Part shown: positions 17,296-55,561 of the stretch, one piece after another
Numbering within the stretch: the first letter of the stretch is position 1
Layout: each line of letters begins with the position of its first letter
NCBI GenBank assembly: GCA_903862955.1
Contig: CAIPAH010000009.1
Span: 1 to 64,000 of the forward strand
DNA length: 64,000 bases
Source of the DNA: an uncultured Opitutia bacterium
GTDB lineage: Bacteria > Verrucomicrobiota > Verrucomicrobiia > Opitutales > Opitutaceae
Direction of reading: 5' to 3'
The notes under the pieces: generated by a model
Seen by the model: the letters and a program-made list of their open reading frames with translations, nothing else
Told to the model about the DNA's origin: nothing
Database searches by the model: none
Made by a program: the position numbers and the translations under genes

Positions 17296-17376
17296 ATCAC
17301 CGGCCCGCCGAGCGCCCTCCTCTCCGACGCGCCCCACTTCCGGCTTCCATCAATCGAAATTGCCCATCGAAAATTC

Positions 17377-19788: not shown

Positions 19789-19847
19789 ACCGCCAAACTC
19801 CGGCAACCAGCTTCCAGTTTCCTACCCATCGCCTCTCACCCATCGCC

Positions 19848-36458: not shown

Positions 36459-38288
36459 TCAGTCCGCAAACCGCCAGGTCGGCACGAAATCCTTCGGCAG
36501 CTTCGTCTGCTCCAGGTGCGCCCGCACCATCTCGATTGGCATGCTGCCGCCCTGCATGATTCCGTCGTGGAACGCCCGGTCCGTCATCTTGCCCGAGTCC
36601 ACCAATTCATGGTGCAACGCGCGCAGCTGCAGCGCGCCCATCATGTAGCCGACTTGGTAGAGGGGCGAATAGTCGCCGTTGAAGGAGCGGCGCACCTCGC
36701 CCGTCGCACTCGCGCGTTCGTGGCCCACGCGGTCGACCAGGAAGTCGATGCACTGCTGCGGCGTCCATTTGCCGAGGTGAAAGTTGAGCGAGAAAATGAT
36801 CCGCGCGCAGCGGTGCGTGCGCCAGAAGAGCATTCCGATCCGGTCCCCCGGGGAGCGCGGGAAGCCCTTGTCCCAGAGCTGGAATTCCCACCACAGCGCC
36901 CAGCCCTCGACCCAGAACGGCGTGATGAACAGCTCCCGGTGCTGGTTGATCCGCGCGAGGTAATAGAACTGCAAGTGATGCCCCGGCAGCAGTTCGTGGA
37001 ACACCGTCGCGCGCGCAAAATGGATGTTGTTCGCGCGCAGCGCCTGGATCTTCTGGTCCTCCTCCATCGTGTCGGTCGGGTATGAGACGAGGATGTCATT
37101 GCCGCCGAGGAAGAACGGGTTCGTTTTCTGCGCCTCGGGCGTCATCATCCGCAGCCGCCACATGTCGGCCGCCAGTGGCGGGATGGTTACGAGGTTGCGG
37201 TCCGACACGAACTTCACGGCCTCGAGCGCCAGGTCACGGACGAGGTCAGGCTGGCGGCCCGGTTCCACGTAGTCGTGCTTGGCCTTTTCCAGCGCCGCCT
37301 TCCAGTCGTCCCCATAACCCATCTCGCGGGCCGCGCGTTTCCACTCCGCGTCGCACCACGCAAACTCCCGGTTCGCAATTTCGATCAGCTGCTCCGGCGT
37401 GTAGGGAATCATCTCGTGCTCCAGCTCGGCCATCAGGCCGTCGCGCCCGATCGGGTCGCCGATGATGGGCTCGTCCTTGCCCGGCTCGACGCCGACCACC
37501 TTCTCGCGGAGGTATTTCACATAACCGTCCAGGTCCTCGTTCAGTGCCTTGTAGGGCGCGCGGTTCCACCAGCTGAACAGCGGGTCGTACCCGTCAAAAT
37601 GCTTGAACCAGTCATCGAGCGACTTCCGCAGCTCCGTCAGCCGGTTCGCCGCGCGATACGCCACGATCCGCGTCGTAACGATGGGCGCAGCCGCTTCCGT
37701 TCCTGGTTTTCTGGCTTCCCCTTTTGCTCCCGTCTGGTCCGCCTTCAATCCCGCCTCGAGCCCCGCGCGCGCCGCCGCCAGCTCCTTGCGCATCTGGTCC
37801 AGCGTCGCCGCCGCGGCCGCGGGGTTCACCGGCTCCATCATCCGCCGCGATTCCTGCAGCGCCGCAATCTGCTCCGCAAACGGCAGCAGCGGGGCGAGCT
37901 CCTTCGTCCGCGCCTCCTCGCGGTCCAGCAGGCGCAATTCGTAAACGAGGTGGCTGCGCAACAGCGTGTAGTCGATCCGGCCTTCGACGCCGAGCGACTC
38001 AAACGCCACCTGCCCGAGCCGCTGCTGCCAGGCTTGGTAAAATTCCCGCATCCGCCGCAGGTGCAGCGCGGAGGTCCGCACGCTGTAAAACCGCTCCAGT
38101 TCGTCGCGGTCAGTCGTGAACCGCTCCACCAGCTCCCGCAGTTCGCTCGACGCAGGCTTCGTCAGCTGCGCCAGCTCGGGCGGGACGTAATCAGAAGTCG
38201 CGCGCGTGGCGACCGGCGCGGGCTCAGCCGCCCAAGTCACGCTGACGGCCGCGGCAAACAGGACGGGAAGGAGGCGGGGTAAGGACAT
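36459..38288 (-). CDS. DUF885 family exported protein, putative zinc peptidase
   Basis: 609 residues with a signal peptide (MSLPRLLPVLFAAAVSVTWA, then AEP). The DUF885 (PF05960) domain fills the rest. It carries HELLPGHHLQFYY, an HExxH-like zinc motif with the family's PGHxLQ extension, and downstream EGWALWWEF, which supplies a likely third metal ligand Glu. Members are regarded as periplasmic metallopeptidase relatives; the substrate is unknown. Residues about 189-199 (GEARKPGTEAA) are the in-frame translation of a dispersed GAAGCCAGGAA-type repeat, located in a surface-type linker between helices. The gene is 180 bases upstream of ilvA on the same strand. Confidence 0.85.
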   Translation of the reverse strand: MSLPRLLPVLFAAAVSVTWAAEPAPVATRATSDYVPPELAQLTKPASSELRELVERFTTDRDELERFYSVRTSALHLRRMREFYQAWQQRLGQVAFESLGVEGRIDYTLLRSHLVYELRLLDREEARTKELAPLLPFAEQIAALQESRRMMEPVNPAAAAATLDQMRKELAAARAGLEAGLKADQTGAKGEARKPGTEAAAPIVTTRIVAYRAANRLTELRKSLDDWFKHFDGYDPLFSWWNRAPYKALNEDLDGYVKYLREKVVGVEPGKDEPIIGDPIGRDGLMAELEHEMIPYTPEQLIEIANREFAWCDAEWKRAAREMGYGDDWKAALEKAKHDYVEPGRQPDLVRDLALEAVKFVSDRNLVTIPPLAADMWRLRMMTPEAQKTNPFFLGGNDILVSYPTDTMEEDQKIQALRANNIHFARATVFHELLPGHHLQFYYLARINQHRELFITPFWVEGWALWWEFQLWDKGFPRSPGDRIGMLFWRTHRCARIIFSLNFHLGKWTPQQCIDFLVDRVGHERASATGEVRRSFNGDYSPLYQVGYMMGALQLRALHHELVDSGKMTDRAFHDGIMQGGSMPIEMVRAHLEQTKLPKDFVPTWRFAD

Positions 38289-38372
38289 TCCCGGATTACA
38301 GCCGTCCCGCCCGCCCGGTCAAACGCGCAGCGGCACCACCGATTGTCCCGGGCGGGCCCGCATTGAATGCCG

Positions 38373-38435
38373 TCGTAGGTCGGGGTTTATCCCCGATATC
38401 CGGATTCAGGTATCGGGCGTAAAGCCCGACCTACA
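38373..38435. repeat. Inverted repeat (GTAGGTCGGG...CCCGACCTAC)
   Basis: GTAGGTCGGGGTTTATCCCC followed by GATA is mirrored by TATCGGGCGTAAAGCCCGAC followed by CTAC, with a short loop. It lies between two co-directional minus-strand genes. Such GTAGGTCGGG palindromes are frequent in verrucomicrobial intergenic DNA (general knowledge). Confidence 0.8.
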
Positions 38436-38453
38436 ACTGAAGTTCGCCGCCTG

Positions 38454-40331
38454 CTAGAATTTCCACTCCACGCCGAAGAACGCCCCGCGGCCCAGCGCGG
38501 GATAGCCATTCACGGCCTCATATTTCTCATTGAGCAGGTTTTCCACCCGCGCCTTCAGGGTGAGGCTCGGCGTCACCGCCCAAGCCGCATACACGCGCGC
38601 CACGGTGTAATCCTCGGCGTCAATCGTCGCGAAGGTCAGCGCATCCACATCCTGCCGCCCCGCCACAAACGCCACGCCCGCGCCCACGGTCACGTCGTGG
38701 CCGATCGCGCGCCACACATCCGCATTGAACGCGTGCCGCGGCCGCCGGAGCAGCCGGGTGTTCGTCGCCAAGTCTTCCGCCTCGAGGTAGGTGTAGGCGA
38801 TCTTCGCCTCGAAGGCGCCGCCCAGCGTGGTCGTCGCGCTCAGTTCCAGGCCGCGCGTCCGCGCACGGTCGGCGTTGACGACCGTGCTCGGGAACACCGC
38901 GAAGTTGTAGACAATCAGGTCCGTGAAGTCCGTGTTGAACCACGTCGCGCTCAGCACGCCGCGCTTCTCTGGCAGATACCAGTCCACCCCGGCGTCCCAG
39001 CCGTGCGACCTTTCCGGCCGCAGGTTCGGGTTGCCGACGTAGTAGGTATCCTTGCCGTAGAGATCGAGGAAGCTCGGCGTGCGGAACGACGTGCCGTAAC
39101 TCGCGCGCAGCTTCACCTCCGGCCCGCTCGGCAGCCAGGCCACCGTGGCCCGACCCGTGGTGGCGCTGCCGAACGTGTCAAAGTCATCGCGGCGGAGCCC
39201 GCCGGTCAGGAACAGGTTCGACAAGGGCGTGAATTCGTCCTGCGCAAACACCGCGAAGAGCGACTGCTTCTGGTCGATTGCGCCGAAGCCGTCGTTCTCG
39301 GTGTGCGTCTGCTCGGCGGTGACGCCCGCCGTAATCCGGTTGGACGCGATCCCGTCGAAACTCGTTTGTGCATCGAGTACCGCGCGGTGGTTTTTCACGT
39401 GATTGGTGTCGGAGGGCGAGAAATACGGCGGATTGGGCGCGGGCGACTCCGCCGTGAAGCGGCGCTCCTGGTCGCCGACGGTGACCCGGCCCGACCAGTG
39501 TTCCGCCGGTGCGAATTCCGCGAACACCGTGACCAGCGTGTTGTCCTCCCGGTTCGTATTGTTCGGGTCGTTCGTGTAGCGGTCGCCCGGCTCGCCGATC
39601 TCGCCGTGATACCAGCGCACCGTGCCGCCGACGCTCAGCGCCGGGGAAATTGTGCGATCAAGGCGCACCACCGCATTGTTGTGCGTGAAGGTGTTGTTCG
39701 GCCGGTCATTTTCCGTGCGGCCGGATTCCGCCGACACCGCATAACCCCACGGGCCCTGCGCACCCTGCGCCGCGATCGTGCCCGAAAACGTGCTGAAACT
39801 TCCGCCCTCGGCGCCCACGCTCGCCGTCGGCGCGCCCTGGCCGCGCTGCGCGGCAATCGAAACCACGCCGCCCACCGCCTCACCGCCGTAGAGCGTGCTG
39901 AGGGGACCGCGCGTAATTTCCACCCGATCCGTGGCGCCCAGCGTCGCCCCGCCGAGATAAACTTGGTAGTCCGTGTTCGGGTCGTTCAAGCGGATGCCGT
40001 CGACGAGGAACAGCGTCTGGTTGGAATTCGCCCCGCGCAAAAACACCGAGGTTACCTCGCCCGCGGCGCCGCTGGGCGTCACCGGCGTGCCGGTGGCGAG
40101 GCTGAAGATGCCGCTTACGAGCGTGACCTGGCGGTGCGCCAGGTCGTCCGCGGTCAGGACGTCGGTGACGGTGCCCGCCTGCGTCACCGGCTGCGGCGTG
40201 CGCGTGGCGGACGTGATATAGGGCGCGAGGGTTTCGGGCGGCGTTTGGGCGCGCACGGTCGCGAGCACCGCGAGGGTGCAGGCGAGCAACAGGGACCGGC
40301 GTGTGGAACACGCGAGGGAGGGGACTTTCAT
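38454..40331 (-). CDS. btuB: TonB-dependent receptor, BtuB-like (cobalamin uptake)
   Basis: 625 residues from the ATG at 40331 (MKVPSLACSTRRSLLLACTL). A signal peptide ends near AVLATVRAQ. A plug domain follows (VTDVLTADDLAHRQVTLVSG; VFLRGANSNQTLFLVDGIRL), then a 22-strand-type barrel ending in the aromatic signature FFGVEWKF. Length and plug match BtuB, and a cobalamin riboswitch lies directly upstream on the same strand, which is the strongest evidence for the substrate. The protein would carry corrinoids across the outer membrane with TonB energy. The adjacent divergent genes encode cobalamin-dependent methionine synthase. No BtuCDF importer is seen nearby. Confidence 0.88.
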   Translation of the reverse strand: MKVPSLACSTRRSLLLACTLAVLATVRAQTPPETLAPYITSATRTPQPVTQAGTVTDVLTADDLAHRQVTLVSGIFSLATGTPVTPSGAAGEVTSVFLRGANSNQTLFLVDGIRLNDPNTDYQVYLGGATLGATDRVEITRGPLSTLYGGEAVGGVVSIAAQRGQGAPTASVGAEGGSFSTFSGTIAAQGAQGPWGYAVSAESGRTENDRPNNTFTHNNAVVRLDRTISPALSVGGTVRWYHGEIGEPGDRYTNDPNNTNREDNTLVTVFAEFAPAEHWSGRVTVGDQERRFTAESPAPNPPYFSPSDTNHVKNHRAVLDAQTSFDGIASNRITAGVTAEQTHTENDGFGAIDQKQSLFAVFAQDEFTPLSNLFLTGGLRRDDFDTFGSATTGRATVAWLPSGPEVKLRASYGTSFRTPSFLDLYGKDTYYVGNPNLRPERSHGWDAGVDWYLPEKRGVLSATWFNTDFTDLIVYNFAVFPSTVVNADRARTRGLELSATTTLGGAFEAKIAYTYLEAEDLATNTRLLRRPRHAFNADVWRAIGHDVTVGAGVAFVAGRQDVDALTFATIDAEDYTVARVYAAWAVTPSLTLKARVENLLNEKYEAVNGYPALGRGAFFGVEWKF

Positions 40332-40544
40332 GGATTTCTGCGGGGTTGAACTCGGCAAGAGCAGAAATCCCGGGCCGCGAACGGCCGGATCCACTACTCC
40401 CACCTTCATTGTGCGATGAAGTTTGCGAATCGGCGCGCCGGCGGAGGACCGCCAGCCCACCCTTCGCGTGAGCCTCTCGGGGACAGATATTCGGACTCCG
40501 CCTTTCCCGCGGGAACGGACAAATGACACATGGGTCGCTTGCCC

Positions 40545-40725
40545 GCCCTCCGCTGCCTCTCCGCCTCGCCTTCACCGGTCCACTGGGGCCGATTGGCTTT
40601 TTCACCGGGACAGCCCGGTGAACGGGGGATTGTGATGCGATACCGCAGCGCAACTGTGGCCGGTTCTCACGGCCTTCCCTGTTTCCCAAAAGATACAAAA
40701 GAACGCCAGACGCCGAAACGTTGAG
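40545..40725 (-). promoter_or_regulatory. Cobalamin riboswitch
   Basis: On the minus strand the leader contains ACAGGGAAGGCCGTGAGAAC, then CGGCCACAG, followed by TGCGCTGCGGTATCGCA. This matches the conserved core of B12 aptamers (AGGGAA..CGGTG.GAA.CCGG..C.G..CCGC.ACTGT). Downstream, ACCGGGCTGTCCCGGT forms a strong stem, and AAAAAGCCAATCGGCC occupies the B12-box position in a diverged form. It sits about 220 bases before the BtuB-like receptor gene. Repression by adenosylcobalamin or a related corrinoid is expected. The ends are approximate. Confidence 0.85.
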
Positions 40726-40739
40726 CCGCCCGCGGGCCG

Positions 40740-40799
40740 CTTGCCAAAGGAAATCAATACATCAACGCATATGGATTTGTAGATATGTGACTTGCCAAA
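40740..40799 (+). promoter_or_regulatory. Candidate operator or leader element before metH
   Basis: A nine-base direct repeat CTTGCCAAA occurs at 40740-40748 and 40791-40799. Between them CGCATAT (40766-40772) and ATATGTG (40783-40789) can form a seven-pair stem with one G-U pair. The stretch is AT-rich and lies just before the metH start at 40835. It may be a regulator site or a structured leader; I recognise no known riboswitch. Confidence 0.4.
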
Positions 40800-40834
40800 C
40801 GCCGCCCGGCCGCTTTGCTTGCCTCCCTCCCGCC

Positions 40835-41908
40835 ATGCCCGCCTCCACCCCCCGCCCGGCTGCCTCGACCGCCGCGCTGCGCGCGCTGTTCGCGTCGCGC
40901 ATCGCCGTCCTCGACGGCGCGATGGGCACAATGATCCAGCAGCAGAACCTCGCGGAGGCCGATTTCCGGGGCGCCCGGTTCGCGTCCCATCCCCAGGATT
41001 TGCGGGGCAACAACGACCTGCTTTCGCTCACCAAGCCCCGCCTCATCGAGGACATTCATCTCGCTTATTTCGAAGCCGGCGCGGACCTCGTCGAGACCAA
41101 CACCTTCAACTCCACCGCCATTGCCCAGGCCGACTACGCGATGGAGCCCGTGGTCACCGAGATGAACCTCGCCGCCGCCCGGATCGCCCGCCGCGCCGCG
41201 GACCAGGCCAGCGCACGCCTCGGCCGCCCCTGCTTCGTCGCCGGCGCCCTCGGGCCCACCAATCGCACGGCGTCGATGTCCCCCGACGTCAACCGCCCCG
41301 AATATCGCGCCGTCACCTTCGACACGCTCGTCGCCGCCTACCTCGAGCAGGCCCGCGCGCTCGCCGCGGGCGGAGTGGACGCGCTGCTCGTCGAGACCAT
41401 CTTCGACACCCTCAACGCCAAGGCCGCGCTCTTCGCGCTCGAGCTGCTCTTCGACGAGACCGGCGTGCGCCTGCCGGTCATGATTTCCGTGACGATCACC
41501 GACGCCTCCGGCCGCACGCTGTCCGGCCAGACAGTGAGCGCGTTCTACAACAGCATCCGCCACGCGAAGCCTTTCAGCGTCGGCATCAACTGCGCCCTCG
41601 GCGGCGCGCAAATGCGGCCCTTCCTCGAGGAACTCGCGGGCCTCGCCGAGTGCTTCGTCAGCTGTTATCCCAACGCCGGCCTGCCGAATGCCTTCGGCGG
41701 CTACGACGAAACCCCCGCCGACATGGCCGCCGTCCTCGGCGACTTCGCCGCGCAGGGCTGGGTCAACCTGGTCGGCGGCTGCTGCGGCTCGACCCCCGCG
41801 CACATCGCCGCCATCGCCGCCGCCGTGCGGCAGTCCAGGCCCCGCGCCCTCCCCGCCCACGAGTCCGCCATGCGCCTCAGCGGCCTCGAACCGCTCAACG
41901 CGGCCTGA
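40835..41908 (+). CDS. metH: MetH homocysteine-binding half (split methionine synthase)
   Basis: 357 residues from the ATG at 40835, forming only the homocysteine S-methyltransferase barrel of methionine synthase. [15 protein letters not shown] opens the domain. The three zinc ligands are Cys253 (GINCALGG) and Cys316-Cys317 (GGCCGSTP). In cobalamin-dependent methionine synthase this domain binds and activates homocysteine. The remaining domains are encoded by the next gene, 90 bases downstream on the same strand. Split MetH enzymes are known in some phyla. The gap between the two genes is filled by an inverted repeat. The ATG chosen excludes a longer frame that overlaps the upstream repeat element. 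Confidence 0.92.
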
Positions 41909-41914
41909 TTTGCT

Positions 41915-41980
41915 CACGCCAAGCCGCTAAGCCGCCAAGCCCTACCATGCCCTCCTTTGCGTCTTTGCGGCTTTGCGTGA
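41915..41980. repeat. Inverted repeat between the two metH genes
   Basis: CACGCCAAGCCGCTAAGCCG, continuing CCAAG, is mirrored by CTTTGCGTCTTTGCGGCTTT, continuing GCGTG. It occupies nearly the whole 90-base gap between the homocysteine-binding and the folate/cobalamin halves of methionine synthase. Confidence 0.8.
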
Positions 41981-41998
41981 TACCCGCCTTCTCCACCC

Positions 41999-44767
<2,769 letters not shown>

Positions 44768-44836
44768 GTCGCAAAAATCTGCGCGGAGTCATTCGCCATA
44801 ATTCAAGAAGTCGAAACTGCCGCGCTTGCCTATACT

Positions 44837-45394
44837 TTGGAGGCCTGCCTATCCGCACAGGAGTTGAGGAACGCCCAGATCGAACACGAGGTCGTATACA
44901 AGTCGGGAATCAAATATCCCGACGAAACTCTTCGCAGATTCGCTTCCGTCGCTGGAACACTAGAGATCCTTGAGCGAGAGTTTCTTTCTCTCAAAGAGGA
45001 GAAGGCTGCACTAGTAAAGGCGGCTTGCGAGTCGATCACGCAAAGATTTGTTTCCACAACTAGACTCAGTCCAGTTCGGTTATGCGCGTTGCTGTCAATC
45101 GAGCGCCGGGAAGGGGTTCGATTCGCTGAAGTGGATGGACTCCCTACTGGCATTGAGTCCCTCTGCGTTGAAGCACTCCGAAGGTCTAGGATCGGAGACA
45201 TTGGAAGGCTGCGCTCATGTATCCGGTCAAAGAGAATGCATAGGTTAGTTCAGCGATACGCTTCCAATACTGGCAGTTCTGTTGATACGGTTTCTGATTT
45301 TGTCCTAATCCTGCTCGTGCTTAAGCTGAATAACCCAGAAGTCTTGCAAGACCTCTTCCCGGAATTTCTGGCTGATCAGGGTCTAATGAATTGA
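44837..45394 (+). CDS. Unknown protein, low-GC gene
   Basis: 185 residues from a TTG codon. The frame is open upstream to the metH stop and the residues there (IIQEVETAALAYTLEACLSA) look protein-like, so a non-standard start slightly upstream is possible. No family is recognised. The sequence is mostly helical with mixed charge, without membrane segments, and ends in a hydrophobic helix region (DFVLILLVLKLNNPEVLQDL). Codon use and GC content (near 47 percent by eye) are clearly unlike the neighbours, which suggests recent acquisition. A hairpin with terminator character overlaps its stop. Confidence 0.55.
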   Translation: MEACLSAQELRNAQIEHEVVYKSGIKYPDETLRRFASVAGTLEILEREFLSLKEEKAALVKAACESITQRFVSTTRLSPVRLCALLSIERREGVRFAEVDGLPTGIESLCVEALRRSRIGDIGRLRSCIRSKRMHRLVQRYASNTGSSVDTVSDFVLILLVLKLNNPEVLQDLFPEFLADQGLMN

Positions 45395-45428
45395 GGATCG
45401 ATTCGGAGCATTCGGTCCTCAGATTTTA
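45392..45428. terminator. Hairpin terminator between convergent genes
   Basis: TGAGGATCG and CGGTCCTCA form a nine-pair stem with one mismatch or wobble around a 12-base loop, followed by GATTTTAG. It lies between the low-GC gene and the convergent methyltransferase gene, and probably ends transcription of the former. Confidence 0.55.
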
Positions 45429-46094: not shown

Positions 46095-46225
46095 CGGCCC
46101 GCCAGCAAAGCGAAATGCCGGAGCCTGACGATGCGGAAGTCGGTGGGCCGGCCACGCCGCGGCTGCGCATTAATTGCGGCAAATGTCCCTATCATTCCTG
46201 CGCTGATGGGCGTAAGTTTGGTGCA

Positions 46226-47707: not shown

Positions 47708-47808
47708 CCGCAAGCTAGTTCGCGCCTGGGCTGGGCGATCGACCCTTTCCGGGGCCGAAAAATCAGGCCTGACTTTAAGTCGCGGCCTCCGACCATGGAG
47801 ACCGCTCC

Positions 47809-49155
47809 ATGAATCCCTCCGGATCCACACGTTCGCTGTTCTGCCTGCTCCTCGGCGGCTTCCTCGCCGGCACGGGCACCTGCTTGGCTGCGGACCTGAC
47901 GCTCCAGGCCAAGGCGTGGTCCGACGATCACTCCGCGCTGCTGGAACAGGCCGCCAGGCTCAGCACCGATGGCTATGCCGCGGATGGCAACAAGCTGCTT
48001 GCCGACCAGGCCGACGACGATGGCGGGGCCGCCGCCGCTTTCGCCGTCGCCAACACGCTCTACTCCGCCGACCCCGGCATCTCCTATCGCCTGCACCTCC
48101 GGGCGCAACGGGCCTTCCCCAACGATCCCGCCGCCGTCCTGCAGGCCGCGATGGAACTTCACCGCCACGGCGAATACGCCGCCGCCATCGTCCACTACCG
48201 CCGCCTCGTCGAAGCCGGCGTCATGCCCTACAGCTCCGCCCTGCTCGCCGACTGCCTCGTCCGCACCGGCCAGCTGAAGGCCGCCGTCCAAGCCTGGGAC
48301 CACGCGGGCCACGCCCAGCACCACGCCGAGATTGATGCCGCAATCTGCGCCATCTACGGCCCGCTCTCTCCCTACCAGCGCCGCAGCGACCTCATCGCGA
48401 AGATCGAGGGCGGCGAACTGGCCAAGCTGGCCGACCTGATCCTGCTCGACCTCAACTTCGACACCGATTGGTGGAACGCCCGCGTCAACCACGATGCCGT
48501 GGACGCCGACTTGAAGCGCGCCGGCACGGCACTGGGCAAACGCGACGCCCGCTACCGCCAACTCGCGCTCTACGCCCAGCTGACCCGCGTCGAGGAAAAG
48601 CGCGCGAGCGAAATCCTGCGGTTGCTCAAGGACACCAACCTCATCGTCGGCACCGGCGCAGAACTCCCCGCGGATTCCCGGATCGCGCGCGCCCTCTGCG
48701 AACTCGCCGTCAACGCCCGCCTCGTCACCCCCGCCGAACTCTGGACCGCCTACGAAGCGACGCTACGCGGCCGCCTGGAGCAGCAGGATCACGACGCCCT
48801 GCACCTGCTCTGCTGGCTCGCCGCGGCCAACCACAACCCCGAGCTGACCAACCTGGACCGGATCGGCTTTGAGGAATGGAACGACCCGGTCTTCGCCTCG
48901 AGCTACCTCGTGGATTTGTTTCGCGAGAAGAAGCTGACCTCGGTCACGGACTCACAGCTGCTGGCCGCGATGGCGATCTCGCCGGACAACGCGACACTGG
49001 CCAACCTCCGCCTTGTCCTGGCCGGCGACGCCGTGACGACCGACCTGATCGCCAGCTCGATCAAGGCCGAGTTTCGCAAGCTTTCCGTCGGCGAAACCCG
49101 CCGCGATTCCGCCACGCTCGACAGCCTGTTCGCCGAGCTGGGCAAGCGGCTTTGA
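47809..49155 (+). CDS. Exported helical-repeat (TPR-like) protein
   Basis: 448 residues. A signal peptide (residues 1-28, with [19 protein letters not shown]) is followed by alanine-rich helical pairs. Several have TPR spacing, for example [20 protein letters not shown] and [20 protein letters not shown]. No catalytic motif is visible. Such proteins act as scaffolds in the periplasm or at the outer membrane; no partner can be named from the neighbours. A 100-base gap upstream holds nothing I recognise. Confidence 0.7.
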
Positions 49156-49254
49156 AGCGCCCCAACTGGCTGGCCAGCGGGAGGTTGTTCGTGCATTAAC
49201 CCGGCGGCGCTGAACACCAGCCCGCCGTGTCCACGGTTCAATTCATTCACCCCC

Positions 49255-50745
49255 ATGAAGCTTGCCGCGTCCGAACCACCGCTGGAGGTTTCCTATCCCA
49301 TCGCTTACCGGCTCTTCACCGGCACCATTTACAACCGGGACTTCAAGGGCAAAGGCACGCTGACCATCCGGGCGTCGGGCCCCGCCTACATCTTCCAGGG
49401 CCAGCGCGCCGGGATGTTCTCCGGTCCGCCGATGAACCTGGAATTCGCCGCTGACGAGATTTGGAACGTCGCCGTGAAAGGCCGCCGCGTCAGCTTCAAG
49501 ACCGCTTGGGGCGAAGCCGGCAAGAAGGGGTTGCCCTTCGTGTTTTTCTGCGAGGACGACGCCGCGGCCCAGCTCGTGGCCTCGCTGCTGCCGGCGCACC
49601 TCGACCCGGACTACGTCGCCACCCATGAGTTCACGACCCGCCTGAACGCCCTCGCCGATGCACAGAGCCCGTGGACGTCTGCGACCAACCTCATCATCGC
49701 GCTCAACGCGCTGGTCTTCGTGATCATGGGCTTCCTGGGCGCTGGCTGGTTCACGGTCGACAGCATGATGCCGTATTTCCTGTACGGTGCGAACAACGGT
49801 GCGGCGACCACGGACGGCGAGTGGTGGCGGCTGCTGACCAGCATGTTCGTCCACTACGGGGTGCTTCATCTCGCGCTCAACATGTGGGCGCTCTACCAGG
49901 CCGGGCATTTCCTCGAGAAGCTGCAGGGCCGCGCGCTTTACGTCCTGACCTACCTCGGCAGCGGCCTCGCCGGCGGGTTCCTCAGCATCGCCTGGCACGG
50001 TGACAAGACCTGGAGCGCGGGCGCGTCCGGCGCCATTTTCGGCGTCTACGGTGCGATCCTCGGCTACATGCTCCGCGAAAAGCAGGGGCTCCCGCCCGGC
50101 GTCTACAAGCCGATGATGAAGAGCACACTCGGCTTCGCCGCCTACAACCTCTTCTACGGCATGCGCGCCGGCGTGGATAATTCCGCGCACCTCGGCGGGC
50201 TCATCGGTGGCTTCGCGCTGGGCTGGCTGCTCGCGCTTCCCGTCGACCGCGAGGCCCGCCTTGGCCGGACGCGGCAGAAGTTCCAACTCGGGCTGGGCGC
50301 GCTCGCCGTGATGATTGCGGCCGGCATTTTCCTGACCCCGCGATTCAACTACAGCGTGGCGGACGAACTCAAATGGGAGGCAGTCGAGAAGGACTTCGGT
50401 CCGAAGGAATCCGAATTGCTGGATCAGCACCAAAAGGCGCTGCCCGGACTGAAACGAGGATCGAACGGCACCGCCCATGCCGAGTGGATGGCGGCCAATC
50501 TCGTTCCACTCTATGAACAATGGAGTCGTCGCCTCCAGGCGCTTTCCCTCGCGCCCGGTCGTCTCACCGCCCTTCGCCGCGATGCGGTCGTCAAAATCTT
50601 CCGCCTCCGCCTTGACTGCTACCGGCATCTGATCGCCGGCCTGCAGGCTCACCAGCCCGATGCGCTAGACCGGTATTCCCAGGAGGAAGACGAGATTGGG
50701 AAAGAGATTGATAAGTTTCAAAAGTCGCAGCCGCCCTCACCGTGA
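49255..50745 (+). CDS. Rhomboid-family intramembrane serine protease with N-terminal extension
   Basis: 496 residues. The first 135 residues form a soluble domain of no recognised family (LFTGTIYNRDFKGKGTLTIR...). Six membrane segments follow from about 145 to 330, with the catalytic pair Ser258 (GASGAIFG) and His312 (NSAHLGGLIGGF), and the L1-loop helix HLALNMWALYQAG. A C-terminal soluble helix of about 140 residues ends the protein. The enzyme would cut membrane proteins within the bilayer. The N-terminal extension is unusual for bacterial rhomboids and may recruit substrate from the cytoplasm. It appears monocistronic. Confidence 0.9.
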   Translation: MKLAASEPPLEVSYPIAYRLFTGTIYNRDFKGKGTLTIRASGPAYIFQGQRAGMFSGPPMNLEFAADEIWNVAVKGRRVSFKTAWGEAGKKGLPFVFFCEDDAAAQLVASLLPAHLDPDYVATHEFTTRLNALADAQSPWTSATNLIIALNALVFVIMGFLGAGWFTVDSMMPYFLYGANNGAATTDGEWWRLLTSMFVHYGVLHLALNMWALYQAGHFLEKLQGRALYVLTYLGSGLAGGFLSIAWHGDKTWSAGASGAIFGVYGAILGYMLREKQGLPPGVYKPMMKSTLGFAAYNLFYGMRAGVDNSAHLGGLIGGFALGWLLALPVDREARLGRTRQKFQLGLGALAVMIAAGIFLTPRFNYSVADELKWEAVEKDFGPKESELLDQHQKALPGLKRGSNGTAHAEWMAANLVPLYEQWSRRLQALSLAPGRLTALRRDAVVKIFRLRLDCYRHLIAGLQAHQPDALDRYSQEEDEIGKEIDKFQKSQPPSP

Positions 50746-50863
50746 GCCTCGTGGCTGGCTAGCGGGGCGGGCGCCGGCCAACGTTTCGCTGCGGCCGCGC
50801 TGTAACGACAGCGGAAACGAATTTTGCGTTGTCAGCGGGTTCGCTTAAATCACCGTCTCGGCT

Positions 50864-52003
50864 GTGAGCGCTGCGCCCGCCCGGCTACCCTGGATCGATC
50901 ACCTGCGCACGGGAATGATCGTGCTCGTCGTCAACATGCACGCGTGCGTCACCTACAGCCACGTGGGCGACTGGTATCTGACGATCGAACCCGATCCCTC
51001 GATGTCGGTGAAGATCCCCTTCATCGTCTGGCAGAGCATGCTGCAGTCGTTTTTCATGGGGCTGCTCTTCTTCCTCGCCGGCTACTTTGCCGCCGGTTCG
51101 CTGGCCCGTCGCGGCCCGGGCGGGTTCGCCCGCGAGCGGCTCTTCCGCCTGGGCCTGCCGGTCCTGCTCTACGTGCTGGTGATTCACCCCTTCATCCTCC
51201 TCGGGCTCAATCCCTGGCATCATGACTTTGGACCCCGCCCAGCGTGGTATGGGCGTTACCTCCTCTCGGGTCGCTTCATTGGCGAAACCGGGCCGCTTTG
51301 GTTTGCCGTCGCACTGCTGCTCTTCTGCCTCGCACTCGCCGGCCTCGCGCGGCTGCGGCGGCCGCGGCTAGTCGTCGCGGCGGTGGTTTTCCCGCCGTCG
51401 GCTGGCGTCCTGGTCGTATTCGGGCTGCTCCTCGGGCTCGGCACCTTCGCCGTTCGGCTGGTCCAGCCCATCGGCACGCACGTGCTCAATCTGCAACTCT
51501 GCTTCTTCGTGGAATACATCGCCTGGTTCATCGCCGGCCTCCATGCCGCGCGCCACGGCTGGCTGCTCGCGCTCGCCGATTCCCGCCGCGCCCGCGTGGC
51601 CGGTTGGATCGCGCTGATCGGCGGCCCTCTGGTCCTTCTCGGGTTGCTGGCGGTCGGGATGCGTTCCGGCACGAAAGAAATGTTCTTCGGCGGCTGGTAC
51701 GGACAGGCATTCGGTCTTGCCGTTTGGGAACAGCTCACCGGCCTCGGCCTCGCCCTCGGGTCAATCGCCCTGTTTTCCCGCCGGTTCGACGCCGATCGGC
51801 CCGCCTGGCGCTGGCTGGACGACCGTTCCTTCGGCGTCTACGTGCTCCACACTCCGGTGCTGATCGCGCTGACCATGCTGTTCCGCTCGCTGCCCTACCA
51901 CCTCTACGGCCTCGTCGCCTTGCTGACCGTGTCCGGCCTGGTCGCCAGTTACCTTGTTGCCGACCTCGCCCGCCGCATCCCCGGCCTGCGGGCGATTCTG
52001 TGA
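50864..52003 (+). CDS. Acyltransferase family 3 (OpgC-like) membrane protein
   Basis: 379 residues from a GTG start, with about ten membrane helices. The N terminus LPWIDHLRTGMIVLVVNMHA carries the early D-x-x-R and His typical of acyltransferase-3 proteins. FFLAGYFAAGSLARRGPGGF, RERLFRLGLPVLLY and GPLWFAVALLLFCLALAG match the family. Related proteins transfer acetyl or succinyl groups to surface glucans or other polysaccharides. The acceptor is unknown. It is followed after 21 bases by an unrecognised gene, with which it may be co-transcribed. Confidence 0.85.
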   Translation: MSAAPARLPWIDHLRTGMIVLVVNMHACVTYSHVGDWYLTIEPDPSMSVKIPFIVWQSMLQSFFMGLLFFLAGYFAAGSLARRGPGGFARERLFRLGLPVLLYVLVIHPFILLGLNPWHHDFGPRPAWYGRYLLSGRFIGETGPLWFAVALLLFCLALAGLARLRRPRLVVAAVVFPPSAGVLVVFGLLLGLGTFAVRLVQPIGTHVLNLQLCFFVEYIAWFIAGLHAARHGWLLALADSRRARVAGWIALIGGPLVLLGLLAVGMRSGTKEMFFGGWYGQAFGLAVWEQLTGLGLALGSIALFSRRFDADRPAWRWLDDRSFGVYVLHTPVLIALTMLFRSLPYHLYGLVALLTVSGLVASYLVADLARRIPGLRAIL

Positions 52004-52024
52004 CCGTCCTGACCCACTCCCCGC

Positions 52025-52834
52025 TTGCACCCGTCGACCTTCCACCCGGCTGATCTGATTCCACTGCCGGGCTACGCGCGCCTCCGAACGGTCGGCAGCT
52101 TTGAGGAACTGGCGTCGACGTCCTTCGGGGCAGCAGTAAATAGTGGCACCGGCTTCCAGCCGGTGGATCAAGTTCATCGGCTGGAAGCCGATGCCACTTC
52201 CTCACGCCCGGGCATAAACGCCTTATGCTGGCCGCGTTCGCTGGCGGGGGACTTTGGCGAAATTGTCACGCAACTCGGCGCCGGGGAGGGCGTCGAGGCC
52301 CACGATGAAACCCGGCTCGAGGCCCTCGCACTGAGCCCCGCCGGTGCGGCCGCCCGTGCGATTCTCCTCGCCGACCTGCAGCTCCTCCGCGACCGCGGTC
52401 TCGCCCCCGAGCTCAACGTGATCCACGCCTACCCGCGCGATGCCGCGGATGCCCTCGTGACCACCGACGTCCATTCCTTCCACGCCGACAGCGCGCCCGC
52501 CGAAGCCGCAACGTGGCTCTGCACTTACCACGGGCGTCCGTCGGATGGCCTCCGCAACGAAGAGGCTCGCCGGCGCGTGGATGTCCCCGCCACGCGCGCT
52601 GCGCTGCTGCGCGACTACGGCGGCCCGGACGATGCCGGCTTCCGCGAATTCCTCCGCGAGCACCACTACGACCTGCACTACGCGCCGGAGCCCGGCGCGC
52701 AGCCGTTCTCCTTCGGGCTCGGCCATCTCTGGCGCATCGCCCTCGACTGGCCGGGCAGTGCAGTCCCGCCCTGCCTGCACCGCGCCCCGCTGCCCCTCCC
52801 CGGCGACCCGCCCCGCCTGCTGCTGATCAGCTAG
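52025..52834 (+). CDS. Unknown protein with translated palindromic repeat
   Basis: 269 residues from a TTG codon; the start is uncertain. No family is recognised. Residues 40-58 (SGTGFQPVDQVHRLEADATS) are the direct translation of two inverted copies of a palindromic repeat also found at 30.7 kb. The rest looks like a cytoplasmic enzyme or binding protein: VTTDVHSFHADSAPAEAATW contains an H-x-D pair that could bind metal, and later HHYDLHYAPEPGAQPFSFGL is distinctive. The C-terminal segment ends LPGDPPRLLLIS. The compact fold on either side of the repeat suggests the repeat occupies a loop. Confidence 0.65.
   Translation: MHPSTFHPADLIPLPGYARLRTVGSFEELASTSFGAAVNSGTGFQPVDQVHRLEADATSSRPGINALCWPRSLAGDFGEIVTQLGAGEGVEAHDETRLEALALSPAGAAARAILLADLQLLRDRGLAPELNVIHAYPRDAADALVTTDVHSFHADSAPAEAATWLCTYHGRPSDGLRNEEARRRVDVPATRAALLRDYGGPDDAGFREFLREHHYDLHYAPEPGAQPFSFGLGHLWRIALDWPGSAVPPCLHRAPLPLPGDPPRLLLIS
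52142..52198 (+). repeat. Two inverted copies of the AGTGGCACCGGCTTCCAGCC repeat, translated
   Basis: AGTGGCACCGGCTTCCAGCC (continuing GGTG) and CATCGGCTGGAAGCCGATGC (continuing CACT) are inverted copies enclosing nine bases, and each half is itself a palindrome. The whole is in frame within the unknown gene. A single copy is intergenic at 30694-30717. Confidence 0.85.
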
Positions 52835-52909
52835 CGGGTCTCGCGACGAATTTCGTAAGCCCATTACCACCGATATTTTGCCGATCGCTCGTATTTTAGT
52901 TCTTGCTTA

Positions 52910-52927
52910 ATTAAGTTTATACTTAAT
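52910..52927. promoter_or_regulatory. Operator-like dyad before the ArsR-type regulator
   Basis: ATTAAGT-TTAT-ACTTAAT is a perfect dyad with seven-base arms, ten bases before the regulator's ATG. It contains the -10-like TATACT at 52918-52923. A dimer bound here would block transcription, so autorepression is the simple reading. It also predicts a very short leader. Confidence 0.75.
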
Positions 52928-52937
52928 CATCTCCGGC

Positions 52938-53276
52938 ATGCAAAGCCTCCTGGCCATCGCCGACCCGACCCGACGCCGGATTGTGGAACTCCTCGCCGAG
53001 GGGGACCGCACCGCGGGCGACCTCGTGAAGGAATTCGACGTCAGCGCACCCGCCATTTCTCAGCACCTGAATGTGCTCCGCGACGCCGGTCTCGTCACCA
53101 CCCGTGCCGAGGGCCAGTCGCGCGTGCAGACCCTCAACCCCGCCGGCTTCGACGAGCTCGAGGACTGGCTCAGCCGCACCCGCCGCTTCTGGAGCCAGCG
53201 CCTCGACGCCCTGGAGCGGGAGCTCCGAGCCGAGGACGAGCGCATCGCCAAAACCACCAAGAAGAGGAAACCCTGA
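52938..53276 (+). CDS. ArsR-family transcriptional repressor
   Basis: 112 residues, winged-helix HTH_5/HTH_20 fold: MQSLLAIADPTRRRIVELLA, then DLVKEFDVSAPAISQHLNVL as the recognition region and a wing with AEGQSRVQTLNPAGFDELED. No paired Cys or His metal site is visible, so this is the group that controls SRPBCC/AHSA1-type genes rather than a metal sensor. The stop abuts the ATG of the next gene with no spacing. The AT-rich dyad overlapping its own promoter is the probable operator. Confidence 0.92.
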   Translation: MQSLLAIADPTRRRIVELLAEGDRTAGDLVKEFDVSAPAISQHLNVLRDAGLVTTRAEGQSRVQTLNPAGFDELEDWLSRTRRFWSQRLDALERELRAEDERIAKTTKKRKP

Positions 53277-53831
53277 ATGAAAGCCAACGACCAGCCCGGC
53301 ACCTTCACCAACCGCGCGGAAGTGCGCTTCGTTCGCACCCTGCCCGGCCCCATCGAGCGCGTGTGGGACTACCTCACCGACCCCGGCAAGCGCGCCCGTT
53401 GGTTTGCCGGCGGCCCGATGGAGCTGCGCCCGGGTGGCAGGGTCACGTTCCTCATTCGCCACAAAAACCTCGCCCCGGACGAAATTCCGCCCGCGGAATT
53501 CCAGGCGAGCTACGACTCCGGCCGCACCGTGAGCGGGACGGTGACCCGCTGCGAGCCGCCGCGCGTGCTGGCGTTCACGTTCGATCACTACGGCCATTCG
53601 GAGGCGACCTTCGAACTCACCGCCCAAGGCAGGGACGTGCATCTGGTGCTCACCCACCGCGGCACCGGGAGCGATATTTCCTACCTGCCCGGGTTTGGCG
53701 CCGGCTGGCACACCCATCTCGCACACCTGATCGCGCAGTTGGAAGGCGCGCCGCGGCCGCCGTTCTGGCCGTTGCACAACCAACTCCTCAAGGCATACGA
53801 AAAAAGCCACGCCGCCGCCCCGGCCAAGTGA
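53277..53831 (+). CDS. SRPBCC (AHSA1-type) domain protein 1
   Basis: 184 residues forming one START/AHSA1 helix-grip fold: VRFVRTLPGPIERVWDYLTD, then PGKRARWFAGGPMELRPGGR, then CEPPRVLAFTFD and LTHRGTGSD. Such proteins bind hydrophobic ligands or act on chaperones; in bacteria they commonly occur in pairs with an ArsR-type regulator. Translation is coupled to the repressor. The next gene is a paralogue (see there), so one probably arose by duplication. Ligand unknown. Confidence 0.9.
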   Translation: MKANDQPGTFTNRAEVRFVRTLPGPIERVWDYLTDPGKRARWFAGGPMELRPGGRVTFLIRHKNLAPDEIPPAEFQASYDSGRTVSGTVTRCEPPRVLAFTFDHYGHSEATFELTAQGRDVHLVLTHRGTGSDISYLPGFGAGWHTHLAHLIAQLEGAPRPPFWPLHNQLLKAYEKSHAAAPAK

Positions 53832-53941
53832 TCCCCCGAATCACGGACAACCGCGGCCCCACCCGCATGGCCTACGCCCGTTCCCGCCTCTGAAATTTCC
53901 CGTCTTCCCTCCTCTAATCGCAGCAACAACCCATCCTCCTC

Positions 53942-54490
53942 ATGAAAACCAACGAACAATACGGCAGCTTCCAAAGCCGTGCCGAGGTCCGCATCGTCCG
54001 CACCCTTCCCGGTCCGATCGAACGCATCTGGGATTATCTCGTTGATCCCGACAAACGCGCCCGGTGGTTCGCCGGCGGCCCCATGGAGCAAAAGCCGGGC
54101 GGCAAAATGGAGCTCTTCTTCCGCCACGAGAACATAGCTCCCGGCGAGACCCCGCCCGAGAAGATGAAGCACGTCCAGGATCCCGGCTTCAAGATGCCCG
54201 GCACCATCCTGCGTTGGGAGCCGCCCCGTGTGCTCAGCTACACGTTCGACGAGGACTCCGAGGTCACCTTCGAGCTCACGCCCCAGGGTCGCGAAGTCCT
54301 GCTCGTGCTCACGCACCGCGCCCGCGGCGAAGACCTGCCCTACATCACCGGTTACGCGAGCGGCTGGCACTCCCACCTCACCCTGCTCCTCGCGCTTCTC
54401 GAGGGCACCCCGCCCCCGCCCTTCTGGGCGACGCATATGAAACTCCGGGAAGACTACGACCAGCTCCTCGCCCAGCTTCCGCCGGCCTAA
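53942..54490 (+). CDS. SRPBCC (AHSA1-type) domain protein 2
   Basis: 182 residues and a paralogue of the preceding protein: both have RTLPGPIER-WDYL-DP-KRA and RWFAGGPME. The second half (LSYTFDEDSEVTFELTPQGR; LTHRARGEDLPYITGYASGW) follows the same fold. It lies 110 bases downstream of the first copy and 28 bases before the DUF899 gene, in the same direction. Ligand unknown. Confidence 0.9.
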   Translation: MKTNEQYGSFQSRAEVRIVRTLPGPIERIWDYLVDPDKRARWFAGGPMEQKPGGKMELFFRHENIAPGETPPEKMKHVQDPGFKMPGTILRWEPPRVLSYTFDEDSEVTFELTPQGREVLLVLTHRARGEDLPYITGYASGWHSHLTLLLALLEGTPPPPFWATHMKLREDYDQLLAQLPPA

Positions 54491-54518
54491 TCCCAATTCA
54501 ACAACCGCATTTCCTCCC

Positions 54519-55265
54519 ATGAAAAAAACCTCCGCCAAAAAACCCACCGTCGTCTCCCCGCAAAAGTGGCTCGCCGCCCGCCGCGCGCTCCTCCGCCAGG
54601 AAAAGAAATTCAGCCGTCTCCGCACCCAGCTCACGCAGCGGCGCCAGGCTCTGCCCTGGGTGAAGGTCGAAAAGGACTACGTCTTCTCGACGCCCAACGG
54701 CACGAAGACCCTCGCCGAGCTCTTCGCCGGACGCAGCCAGCTCATCGTTTACCACTTCATGTATGGCCCCGGCTGGGACGAGGGTTGCATGGGTTGCTCA
54801 TTCGTGTCGGATCACTTCGATGGCGCCATCGCCCACCTCGGCGCCCGCGATGTGACGCTCACCGCCGTCTCCATCGCCCCGCTCAAGGAATTTGCGGCCT
54901 TCAAAAAACGCATGGGTTGGAAATTTCCCTGGGTGTCGTCGCACGGCACGTCGTTCAACCACGACTTCGGCGTCACGTTCACGCCAGAGGAAGTCGCCTC
55001 CGGCCGGGCGAATTACAATTATTCGCCGCGGAAAATTGGCATCGATGAACTGCCCGGCCTGAGCGTGTTCGCCCGCGACGCCGCCGGGAACATCTACCAC
55101 ACGTATTCGACGTATTCCCGCGGACTCGAGGCGCTCATTGGCGCTTATTCCCTGCTCGATCTGGTGCCAAAGGGCCGCGACGAGGATGGTTTGGAGCGGA
55201 GCATGCAGTGGGTGCGCCACCACGACCGCTACAAGTCCGCGCCAGGGAAGAGGCGCTCCGCCTAG
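54519..55265 (+). CDS. DUF899 thioredoxin-fold protein
   Basis: 248 residues of the DUF899 family (thioredoxin-like, AhpC/TSA-related). A basic N terminus (MKKTSAKKPTVVSPQKWLAA) leads into KDYVFSTPNGTKTLAELFAG and FMYGPGWDEGCMGCSFVSDH. The CMGC pair occupies the position of the redox site. FPWVSSHGTSFNHDFGVTF and PGLSVFARDAAGNIYHTYST are typical of the family. Function is not established; a reductase or peroxidase-like role is possible. Its place after two SRPBCC genes under an ArsR-type regulator is a common grouping in bacteria. Confidence 0.9.
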   Translation: MKKTSAKKPTVVSPQKWLAARRALLRQEKKFSRLRTQLTQRRQALPWVKVEKDYVFSTPNGTKTLAELFAGRSQLIVYHFMYGPGWDEGCMGCSFVSDHFDGAIAHLGARDVTLTAVSIAPLKEFAAFKKRMGWKFPWVSSHGTSFNHDFGVTFTPEEVASGRANYNYSPRKIGIDELPGLSVFARDAAGNIYHTYSTYSRGLEALIGAYSLLDLVPKGRDEDGLERSMQWVRHHDRYKSAPGKRRSA

Positions 55266-55285
55266 GCCACCGCCGTCCGAACAAA

Positions 55286-55561
55286 ATGAAGCCAACGCAC
55301 CACCCAGCTCGCGGCGCAGGGGGACTCGCCTTCCGCAGCCTCGGCGTAGGCGGACCTGTCCTCCGTAGCCTTGGCGTAGGAGGAGCCCTCCTGCTCACGC
55401 CCAAGTGCGCGCTGTGCCTGCTCGGCTACGCCGGCCTCGGTGCGGCCCTTGGGCTCACCCGTCCGGAGCTGTGCGGCGCGCCCGCTTCGTCCGCTCAGCC
55501 ATGGCTCTGGCTCTCCTCGGTCGGCGGCGCACTCGCGTGGGTCGCGCTGCGGCGACGATAA
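55286..55561 (+). CDS. Small membrane protein with translated tandem repeat
   Basis: 91 residues from the ATG at 55286 (MKPTHHPARGAGGLAFRSLG). Residues 16-33 are encoded by two tandem copies of a CCGTAGCCTTGGCGTAGG-type repeat (FRSLGVGG, then LRSLGVGG). One or two hydrophobic segments follow (LTPKCALCLLGYAGLGAALG with a CALC pair, and WLWLSSVGGALAWVALR). No family is named with confidence. The repeat may have been captured as the N-terminal part of a shorter membrane protein that begins near ALLLTPKCAL. The downstream 55562-55709 stretch holds a fragment of the CCGTGTGATCCGTGG repeat and no gene. Confidence 0.5.
   Translation: MKPTHHPARGAGGLAFRSLGVGGPVLRSLGVGGALLLTPKCALCLLGYAGLGAALGLTRPELCGAPASSAQPWLWLSSVGGALAWVALRRR

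What the first reader, a model, noticed from the sequence alone, without database searches (positions are those of the whole stretch)
37693..55385. Dispersed palindromic repeats are translated in frame in at least four proteins
Repeat words that are intergenic elsewhere in the window are read as protein in the DUF885 gene (37693-37723), metH (42909-42941 and 43829-43897), the unknown gene at 52.0 kb (52142-52198) and the small membrane protein at 55.3 kb (55331-55385). Each adds about 10-25 residues in linkers, not in active sites. This resembles the palindromic elements that insert peptides in Rickettsia proteins, but with several unrelated families.
Basis: partly seen in the sequence, partly recalled or inferred. 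Interest (0 to 1): 0.7.

Follow-up and report, generated by a model that had tools for sequence, protein, structure and literature searches.

The report
Scattered DNA repeats read as protein
Short DNA repeats that litter the gaps between genes in this bacterium also sit inside working genes and are read as extra protein loops, and related species carry different repeats in those same loops, which suggests that conserved enzymes keep acquiring new loop sequence from repeat DNA.

Summary
Observation mostly right, label mostly wrong. The five listed words are open in frame, but only one is palindromic. That one (52,133-52,210) is a clean 26-codon insertion of a GTGG-tagged REP dimer: 11 of 11 relatives lack it, and the REP has 8 copies here and none in 24 other genomes. 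The two metH sites hold tandem 7-bp words, as in the genome's intergenic spacers. The DUF885 word lies in a variable linker. The 55.3-kb case is unresolved.

The heptad words are the larger finding. In 84 orthologues of five proteins (MetH, GcvP, Lpd, DnaE, DinG-like helicase) I found 57 tracts of 7-bp period against 0 or 1 at each of six control periods, clustered at a few loops. Different genomes fill the same loop with different words, and some are empty. In the three genomes tested, 15 of 19 translated tracts share words with that genome's own intergenic tracts. Seven and three being coprime, a word reads as the same heptapeptide in every frame. One word (AATCGAA) also lies inside conserved enzymes of other phyla.

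In-gene REPs are published for Opitutus, and heptamer repeats for other bacteria. My searches found no report of same-loop word turnover. What disperses the words is unknown.

The parts
36459..38288 (-). DUF885 gene carrying word 1
   Evidence: ORF; Pfam PF05960 E 4e-47; six close relatives aligned
37693..37723 (-). Single arm of the TTCCTGG/GAAGCCAGG-type word, read as KGEARKPGTEA in a variable linker
   Evidence: same word in the window's spacers at 23522, 23565 and 32704; GGGGAAGCCAG 9 matches in 1.23 Mb, reversed control 0; in 6 relatives the linker differs in sequence and length, so insertion is plausible but not proven
41999..44767 (+). metH second half: pterin-binding, B12-binding and activation domains
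   Evidence: Pfam; best PDB match 9ssp
42908..42940 (+). AATCGAA heptad tract, read as [11 protein letters not shown], in the linker between the folate domain and the cap/cobalamin domains
   Evidence: TRF score 62; PDB 3k13 covers query 7-292 and 3bul query 317-922, bracketing the linker; relatives G002, G005, G009, G011 carry related tracts; G001, G003, G007, G008, G010 have a shorter linker without one
43825..43855 (+). TCAGCGR heptad tract, read as [11 protein letters not shown], in the linker between the cobalamin and activation domains
   Evidence: TRF; PDB 1bmt ends at query 565 and 1msk starts at 630; other words in the same linker in relatives
43866..43895 (+). CTAACAC heptad tract, read as [10 protein letters not shown], same linker
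   Evidence: TRF; the break in register (ACGTACC) avoids the TAA that a perfect tract would read in every frame
52025..52834 (+). DUF1826-like gene hit by the REP dimer
   Evidence: Pfam DUF1826 22.3 bits, cut-off 22; orthologues in 11 relatives
52133..52210 (+). 78-bp (26-codon) insertion holding a head-to-head GTGGCA REP dimer
   Evidence: absent from 11 of 11 relatives, alignment continuous on both sides; hairpin z -9.2; REP 8 copies in this genome, 0 in 24 others; reading checked
55331..55385 (+). AGCCTyGGCGTAGG word, twice, near the N-terminus of a small ORF; status unresolved
   Evidence: 6 matches to AGCCT[CT]GGCG[TA]AGG in 1.23 Mb, two of them here; ORF not called, one weak homologue
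41917..41978 (.). Inverted pair of 8-bp words in the spacer between the metH halves (not translated, not the cause of the split)
   Evidence: relatives with split metH and no such element in the gap
30695..30714 (+). Another copy of the GTGGCA REP, in a spacer

Best explanation
The genome carries two kinds of dispersed short DNA element, and both are sometimes read as protein. (1) A GTGG-tagged REP dimer inserted recently and in frame into the DUF1826-like gene. (2) Tandem heptad words: short blocks of 7-bp units with one or two variable positions, from a vocabulary particular to each genome, mostly in intergenic spacers. Blocks that land in genes survive where the protein tolerates extra residues (interdomain linkers, surface loops), where the length is a multiple of three, and where the word has no stop. 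A perfect heptad tract of three or more units reads as the same heptapeptide in all three frames, so the frame of landing hardly matters. The same loops are refilled in different lineages with whichever words that genome carries. Shown: presence, in-frame reading, empty and filled orthologous sites, genome-specific words at the same site. Inferred: that the blocks arrive by copying from elsewhere in the genome, probably replication- or repair-coupled (neither of the two Y1 transposase genes found is flanked by heptads), and that selection acts mainly as a filter after insertion.
For: Own genome: 7-bp period is special. In 1.23 Mb it gives 43 intergenic and 20 gene-interior tracts; periods 5, 11 and 13 give 0-1 intergenic and 0-5 interior. 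Five genes, 84 orthologues, 238 kb: 57 tracts of 7-bp period against 4:1, 5:1, 8:1, 10:0, 11:0, 13:1; 47 of the 57 are in relatives; most cluster at a few positions, e.g. MetH 308-310 and 615-629, GcvP 740-742, DnaE 841-864, DinG 642-655. Empty and filled sites: Lpd insert in G000, G004, G006, none in 7 of 13, another shorter residue run in 3; DnaE loop empty in 5 of 12, filled in 7 of 12; 52-kb gene empty in 11 of 11 relatives. Own vocabulary: 9 of 10 translated tracts of G000 share 10-mers with G000 intergenic tracts and 0 of 10 with those of G014 or G015; G014 5 of 6 with its own, 2 of 6 with G000's, 0 of 6 with G015's. Positions: linkers and loops against PDB chains. REP: 8 copies here, 0 in 24 genomes.
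Against: The five genes were chosen because G000 carries words in them, so their density is not a genome average. G015's three translated tracts share words with G014 (2 of 3) more than with its own spacers (1 of 3). Against PDB chains GcvP shows no real lengthening (one residue), so there the word fills an old loop. Some sites (MetH linker 1, GcvP) hold related words in several species, which fits an old tract evolving in place. Inverted pairing is common among intergenic tracts of G000 (23 of 43, control 9 of 129) but absent at the same cut-off among its 20 interior tracts (0 of 20), and not above control in G014 (3 of 12, control 7 of 36) or G015 (0 of 6, control 3 of 18). About 3 of the 20 interior tracts look like plain GC-rich coding repeats and 2 lie near a doubtful N-terminus. 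The excess of stop-free words in genes (16 of 20 against 32 of 122, Fisher p 7e-6) is partly circular, since an open tract of 21 bp or more already samples all seven triplets. No dispersal event or enzyme was seen.
Confidence: 0.75

Rival explanations
1. Local replication slippage: heptad tracts arise anew in unconstrained linkers because polymerase slips in 7-nt steps; no dispersal is needed.
For: MacGregor's introduction reports a published proposal that heptamers are the most abundant 5-11-nt repeat class in most genomes and that 7 nt may match the polymerase footprint (PMC4679880, passage seen). G015 holds long near-perfect ATTGGTC arrays. Related words persist at MetH linker 1 and GcvP.
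Against: Words in the loops are the genome's own spacer words (9 of 10 for G000, 5 of 6 for G014). The Lpd insert is one word at a site empty in 7 of 13. DnaE inserts of several genomes hold two complementary arms, which slippage alone does not make. REP dimers occupy one of the same loops (DinG, G006).
Confidence: 0.2
2. All of them are REPs moved by RAYT (Y1 tyrosine) transposases, the heptads being degenerate REPs.
For: GTAG-tagged REPs are common in the spacers; one Y1 gene lies between two of them; the 52-kb insert is a GTGG-tagged dimer.
Against: Heptad tracts carry no GTAG/GTGG tag, mostly do not fold, and neither of the two Y1 genes found is flanked by heptads.
Confidence: 0.08
3. The extra peptides are selected functions (docking sites or regulated linkers), and the DNA likeness follows from the peptide.
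For: The same heptapeptide recurs in unrelated enzymes.
Against: The DNA word, including synonymous positions, is shared; the word is also read antisense as another peptide (IFDFRFS in an IleRS-like protein); different species use unrelated words in the same loop.
Confidence: 0.04
4. Misassembly, binning or annotation artefact of draft genomes.
For: The window's genome is in 31 contigs; several relatives are drafts.
Against: G014, G015 and G016, which are in 1-2 contigs, show tracts in these genes; three species share the Lpd insert.
Confidence: 0.02

Closest known systems
GTAG/GTGG-tagged REPs inside genes, Opitutus terrae (Di Nocera et al. 2013, PMC3733652; abstract, sections 15 and 16 and passages read)
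   Same: Same phylum by recall; in-frame REPs in many genes, more than half of the inserts dimers or grouped repeats coding 20-30 residues; GTAG-20 mostly mutated to GTGG in O. terrae; the 52-kb insert fits this. The paper also notes different REPs at about the same site of recB in two Xanthomonas species.
   Different: That paper treats palindromic REPs; the passages I read do not describe tandem heptad words, genome-specific heptad vocabularies or repeated refilling of one loop across a genus.
Rickettsia palindromic elements (RPE; seen here only as described in PMC3733652, otherwise recalled)
   Same: Short mobile DNA read in frame in many proteins, in tolerated places.
   Different: RPEs are palindromic families particular to Rickettsia; four of the five words here are not palindromic.
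TAACTGA heptamer repeats of Beggiatoaceae, cyanobacteria and Bacteroidetes (MacGregor 2015, PMC4679880; section 15 and passages read)
   Same: 7-bp tandem words, mostly intergenic, read as a heptapeptide (LSVISYQ) when inside ORFs; no known mover.
   Different: One word; in-ORF copies mostly at protein ends or in hypothetical proteins; no orthologue comparison showing replacement.
Heptanucleotide STRR repeats of cyanobacteria (recalled) and GGGAATC / GGGGATT repeats of Xanthomonas and Nostoc (PMC4692102; passages read)
   Same: 7-bp tandem words dispersed in spacers; 68% intergenic in the Nostoc genome of that paper, so some intragenic; not associated with mobile elements there.
   Different: Proposed as G-quadruplex formers; the passages I read do not treat in-frame turnover in loops.

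Membership tests
GTAG-tagged REP (52-kb insert) | 20-40-bp stem-loop | tested here: met
   z -9.2 for the dimer
GTAG-tagged REP (52-kb insert) | GTAG tag (GTGG in most O. terrae GTAG-20) | tested here: met
   GTGGCA at both outer ends; GTGG variant stated in PMC3733652; the GTAG-20 consensus itself was not seen (figure not held)
GTAG-tagged REP (52-kb insert) | dispersed copies, dimers | tested here: met
   8 matches, including a second pair at C30:123804/123842
GTAG-tagged REP (52-kb insert) | cognate RAYT | tested here: inconclusive
   two Y1 genes in the genome; one lies between GTAGGTCGGGC REPs, the other between GGGGTCAG inverted repeats; none seen beside this REP
Rickettsia palindromic element | palindromic and in frame within ORFs | tested here: not met
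   in frame yes, but only 1 of 5 window words is palindromic
Rickettsia palindromic element | sequence membership of a described RPE family | not tested
   no RPE sequence was compared
Heptanucleotide tandem repeat (STRR-like) | 7-bp unit, tandem, with excess over other periods | tested here: met
Heptanucleotide tandem repeat (STRR-like) | mostly intergenic | tested here: met
   216 per Mb intergenic, 21 per Mb interior
Heptanucleotide tandem repeat (STRR-like) | same words as cyanobacterial STRRs | tested here: inconclusive
   the AATCGAA 25-mer occurs in records titled Nostoc, Richelia, Microcoleus and Tychonema; published STRR sequences were not compared
MITE / transposon | terminal inverted repeats and target-site duplication | tested here: inconclusive
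   inverted word pairs in 23 of 43 intergenic tracts of G000, control 9 of 129, but 0 of 20 interior; target duplications were not tested

The most novel reading that the evidence does not exclude
Heptad words form a bacteria-wide class of mobile or copied short DNA whose coding compatibility (7 coprime to 3, stop-free words) makes it a steady supplier of new loops to conserved enzymes. The exact AATCGAA 25-mer occurs in records of about twelve phyla and is read as SKIENRK inside a HypF-like protein (about 22 extra residues against 3vth), a 51-kD NADH-binding subunit (about 23 extra residues), aconitase (6) and a carbamoyl-phosphate synthase large chain (1). A dedicated but unknown copying activity would keep each genome's vocabulary current and overwrite old tracts.
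Probability: 0.3. Interest if true: 0.88.

Novelty: new variant of a known kind. Interest (0 to 1): 0.7.

Why it matters
If right, linker and loop sequences of housekeeping enzymes (methionine synthase, DnaE, glycine dehydrogenase, lipoamide dehydrogenase, a DinG-like helicase) are partly written by dispersed repeat DNA, and species differences there reflect each genome's repeat vocabulary and not adaptation. It gives natural, datable insertion experiments in essential proteins, warns against reading such loops as functional motifs, and makes an old question (what spreads bacterial heptamer repeats) testable by comparing empty and filled sites.

Tried and rejected
Rejected: the inverted pair between the metH halves as the cause of the gene split; several relatives have split metH with no element in the gap. 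Rejected: RAYT transposition as mover of the heptads; neither Y1 gene is flanked by them. Not upheld: an inverted pair inside G000's translated tracts in general (0 of 20), although DnaE inserts of several genomes show it by eye. A first, stricter lag scan found too little to use (2 interior, 5 intergenic at lag 7) and was replaced by looser settings applied to all lags alike. Searching papers for the DNA words gave 0 papers; for the peptides, one paper, matching only the TAACTGA peptide; further searches listed the papers compared above and none, from listings, on same-loop turnover. The library lacks most subscription journals.

Not done: genome-wide count of in-frame versus out-of-frame insertions (needs orthologues for every gene), target-site duplications, structure prediction, dating of insertions.

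Rows dropped: of loci fetched, the five-gene scan used MetH 22 of 30, GcvP 16 of 24, Lpd 13 of 17, DnaE 16 of 26 and DinG 17 of 26 (mostly other families or part-matches left out). 45% of those tracts (40 of 88) lie in ORFs against 74% of random positions (1771 of 2400); in loci under 50% GC, 13 of 43 against 737 of 1080 (68%): depleted, not enriched, in ORFs.
Full report
Setting. The window is contig C9:1-64000 of a 3.61-Mb draft genome in 31 contigs, about 66% GC. All genome names G000-G101 are handles without species names; that the family is near Opitutus (Verrucomicrobia) is inference from record titles and from the literature match.

What the finding describes. The five places are real and open in frame. 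Only the 52-kb one is a palindrome (z -9.2; others -1.9 to 0.4). The 52-kb case is the cleanest: 26 residues, AVNSGTGFQPVDQVHRLEADATSSRP, sit in an otherwise continuous alignment and are missing in 11 of 11 relatives. The DNA is a head-to-head dimer of a GTGGCA-tagged hairpin with 8 matches in this genome and none in 24 others searched. DUF885 carries one arm of a word common in the spacers, in a linker that differs in length and sequence among six relatives. The 55.3-kb case cannot be settled: no gene call, no Pfam match, one usable homologue that aligns only downstream of the word.

MetH. The C-terminal half of metH (separate gene in most of the family, one gene in most of the other families of the order seen here) carries AATCGAA units between the folate and cap domains, and TCAGCGA plus CTAACAC units between the cobalamin and activation domains; PDB chains bracket both places (3k13 to query 292, 3bul from 317; 1bmt to 565, 1msk from 630). 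In relatives the same two linkers hold other words: GGTCATG with CACCCAG or CCCATCA (G004, G002), GTCACTC (G005, G009), CTCTCAG (G014), CGCCTCC (G020), AAGTGAC with CACTTGC (G021), while G007, G015-G018 and others have a short linker.

Heptads in the genome. In 1.23 Mb, tracts with 7-bp period number 43 in spacers (216 per Mb) and 20 inside genes (21 per Mb); periods 5, 11 and 13 give 0-1 and 0-5. Periods 8, 9 and 10 are also raised in spacers (14, 23, 8), and 6, 9 and 12 inside genes, as codon periodicity would give. G014 (400 kb sampled) gives 12 and 4, G015 (400 kb) 6 and 5 at lag 7. The interior ones in G000 include a 2-oxoacid dehydrogenase E2 linker, Lpd, GcvP, DnaE, a DinG/XPD-like helicase (four tracts), a YfbK-type VWA protein, an OGG-like glycosylase, an RsmB/F methyltransferase and a gyrase/topoisomerase IV A subunit. 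About 3 of the 20 look like ordinary GC-rich coding repeats and 2 lie by doubtful starts.

Same loop, different word. Across 84 orthologues of five proteins (238,341 bp) the scan found 57 tracts at lag 7 and at most one at each of lags 4, 5, 8, 10, 11 and 13. Ten are G000's own, for which the genes were chosen; 47 are in relatives. They cluster: MetH 308-310 (7) and 615-629 (10), GcvP 740-742 (7), DnaE 841-864 (6), DinG 642-655 (8). The DinG 642-655 loop holds CCCATCG (G000), GGAGATG with CCCATCT (G004), GATCTGC (G005), GGATTGC (G007), GGATTCC (G008), AATCCGC (G009), CTCAACT (G015) and, in G006, an in-frame GTAG-type REP dimer. The DnaE loop is five residues long in G001, G007, G009, G010 and G011 and filled in G000, G002, G004, G005, G006, G008 and G012; six of these seven fills show heptads with complementary arms by eye, G005 does not. 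The Lpd insert (12 residues, AATCGAA word) is in G000, G004 and G006, absent in 7 others of 13; three have another short run.

Vocabulary. G014's spacer tracts are mostly CTCTCAA/CTCTCAG and so are its translated ones; G000's are not. Counting shared 10-mers with intergenic tracts: G000 9 of 10 with its own, 0 with G014 or G015; G014 5 of 6 with its own, 2 with G000's (a larger sample), 0 with G015's; G015 1 of 3 with its own, 2 of 3 with G014's. The last goes against a strict one-genome rule.

Frame. Seven and three are coprime, so a perfect heptad tract gives the same cyclic heptapeptide in each frame: AATCGAA reads NRKSKIE, antisense FDFRFSI, with no stop either way. 16 of 20 interior tracts are stop-free in all three sense frames against 32 of 122 spacer strand-orientations, but this is partly circular. 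CATTAGT, which stops on both strands, is G000's commonest spacer word (11 of 43); in a gene it appears only in DnaE, with its register broken.

Other phyla. AATCGAAAATCGAAAATC has 131 matches in 25 of 80 family genomes, reversed control 1. No control heptad could be scanned there, so I cannot say that this word is more common than another would be. Of 88 tracts in the 80 loci analysed, 40 lie in ORFs of 150 aa or more, against 74% of random positions. Nine of ten such proteins sent to Pfam have a known family. Against PDB chains the stretch is longer by about 22 residues in a HypF-like protein, 23 in a 51-kD NADH-binding subunit, 6 in aconitase, 1 in carbamoyl-phosphate synthase.

Mechanism. 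Shown: insertion-like presence and absence, in-frame reading, tolerance in linkers and loops, genome-linked words. Inferred: arrival by copying from other places in the genome. The REP dimer probably moves as other REPs are thought to, by a RAYT; one Y1 gene of this genome sits between GTAG REPs of another family. For the heptads I saw no enzyme; replication- or repair-coupled copying is my guess.

Known or new. In-gene REPs in Opitutus terrae are published (PMC3733652: abstract, sections 15 and 16, passages), as are single-word heptamer repeats in ORFs (PMC4679880: section 15, passages) and intragenic heptamers in Nostoc and Xanthomonas (PMC4692102: passages). What I did not find in the ten paper searches is the refilling of the same loops with different words across a genus. 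I file it as a new variant of a known kind.

Noticed in passing
G000:C23 about 11760-12395 (in L157): A Y1 transposase (RAYT) gene lies between GTAGGTCGGGCTTTACGCCCGAC repeats in opposite orientation, i.e. a REPtron.
   Followed up: partly
G000:C22 about 239778-240830 (in L156): A second Y1 transposase gene lies between long inverted repeats starting GGGGTCAGCCCCTAACTTTTGTAGTT, like the TIR-flanked genes with a GGGGWSAS motif of PMC3733652.
   Followed up: partly
G000:C9:74367-74530 (in L038); C2:15448-15624; C16:87631-87784: Nested inverted pairs: one word pair encloses another, e.g. GCCCACGGA..TCCGTGGGC around TGTCATTCTGAGCG..CGCTCAGAATGACA. How such nests form is unexplained.
   Followed up: no
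window 52133-52141 and 52211-52219: The residues flanking the REP insert (AVN before, GIN after) both resemble the GVN of relatives, which may be a diverged target duplication of about 9 bp; not tested.
   Followed up: no
L200/L201/L202, Lpd: The 60-bp block with the insert is 100% identical between G000 and G006 and 95% between G000 and G004, while most neighbouring blocks are 80-91%; gene conversion or chance.
   Followed up: no
window 40721-41908 and 41999-44767: metH is two genes here and in most of the family, but one long ORF in most of the other families of the order seen.
   Followed up: partly
window 9205-22280: Five large ORFs of 810-865 aa in tandem, four sharing the exact word TCGGCATCCGCATGGC; they look like duplicated genes.
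   Followed up: no
L438:16351-16450 and L448:9780-9892 (G015): Near-perfect arrays of about 12-15 units of ATTGGTC or its complement in spacers, so expansion also happens in place.
   Followed up: no
window 40560-40720: The leader between the TonB-receptor-like gene and metH looks by eye like a cobalamin riboswitch (recalled motif), but no Rfam family reached its gathering score there.
   Followed up: partly
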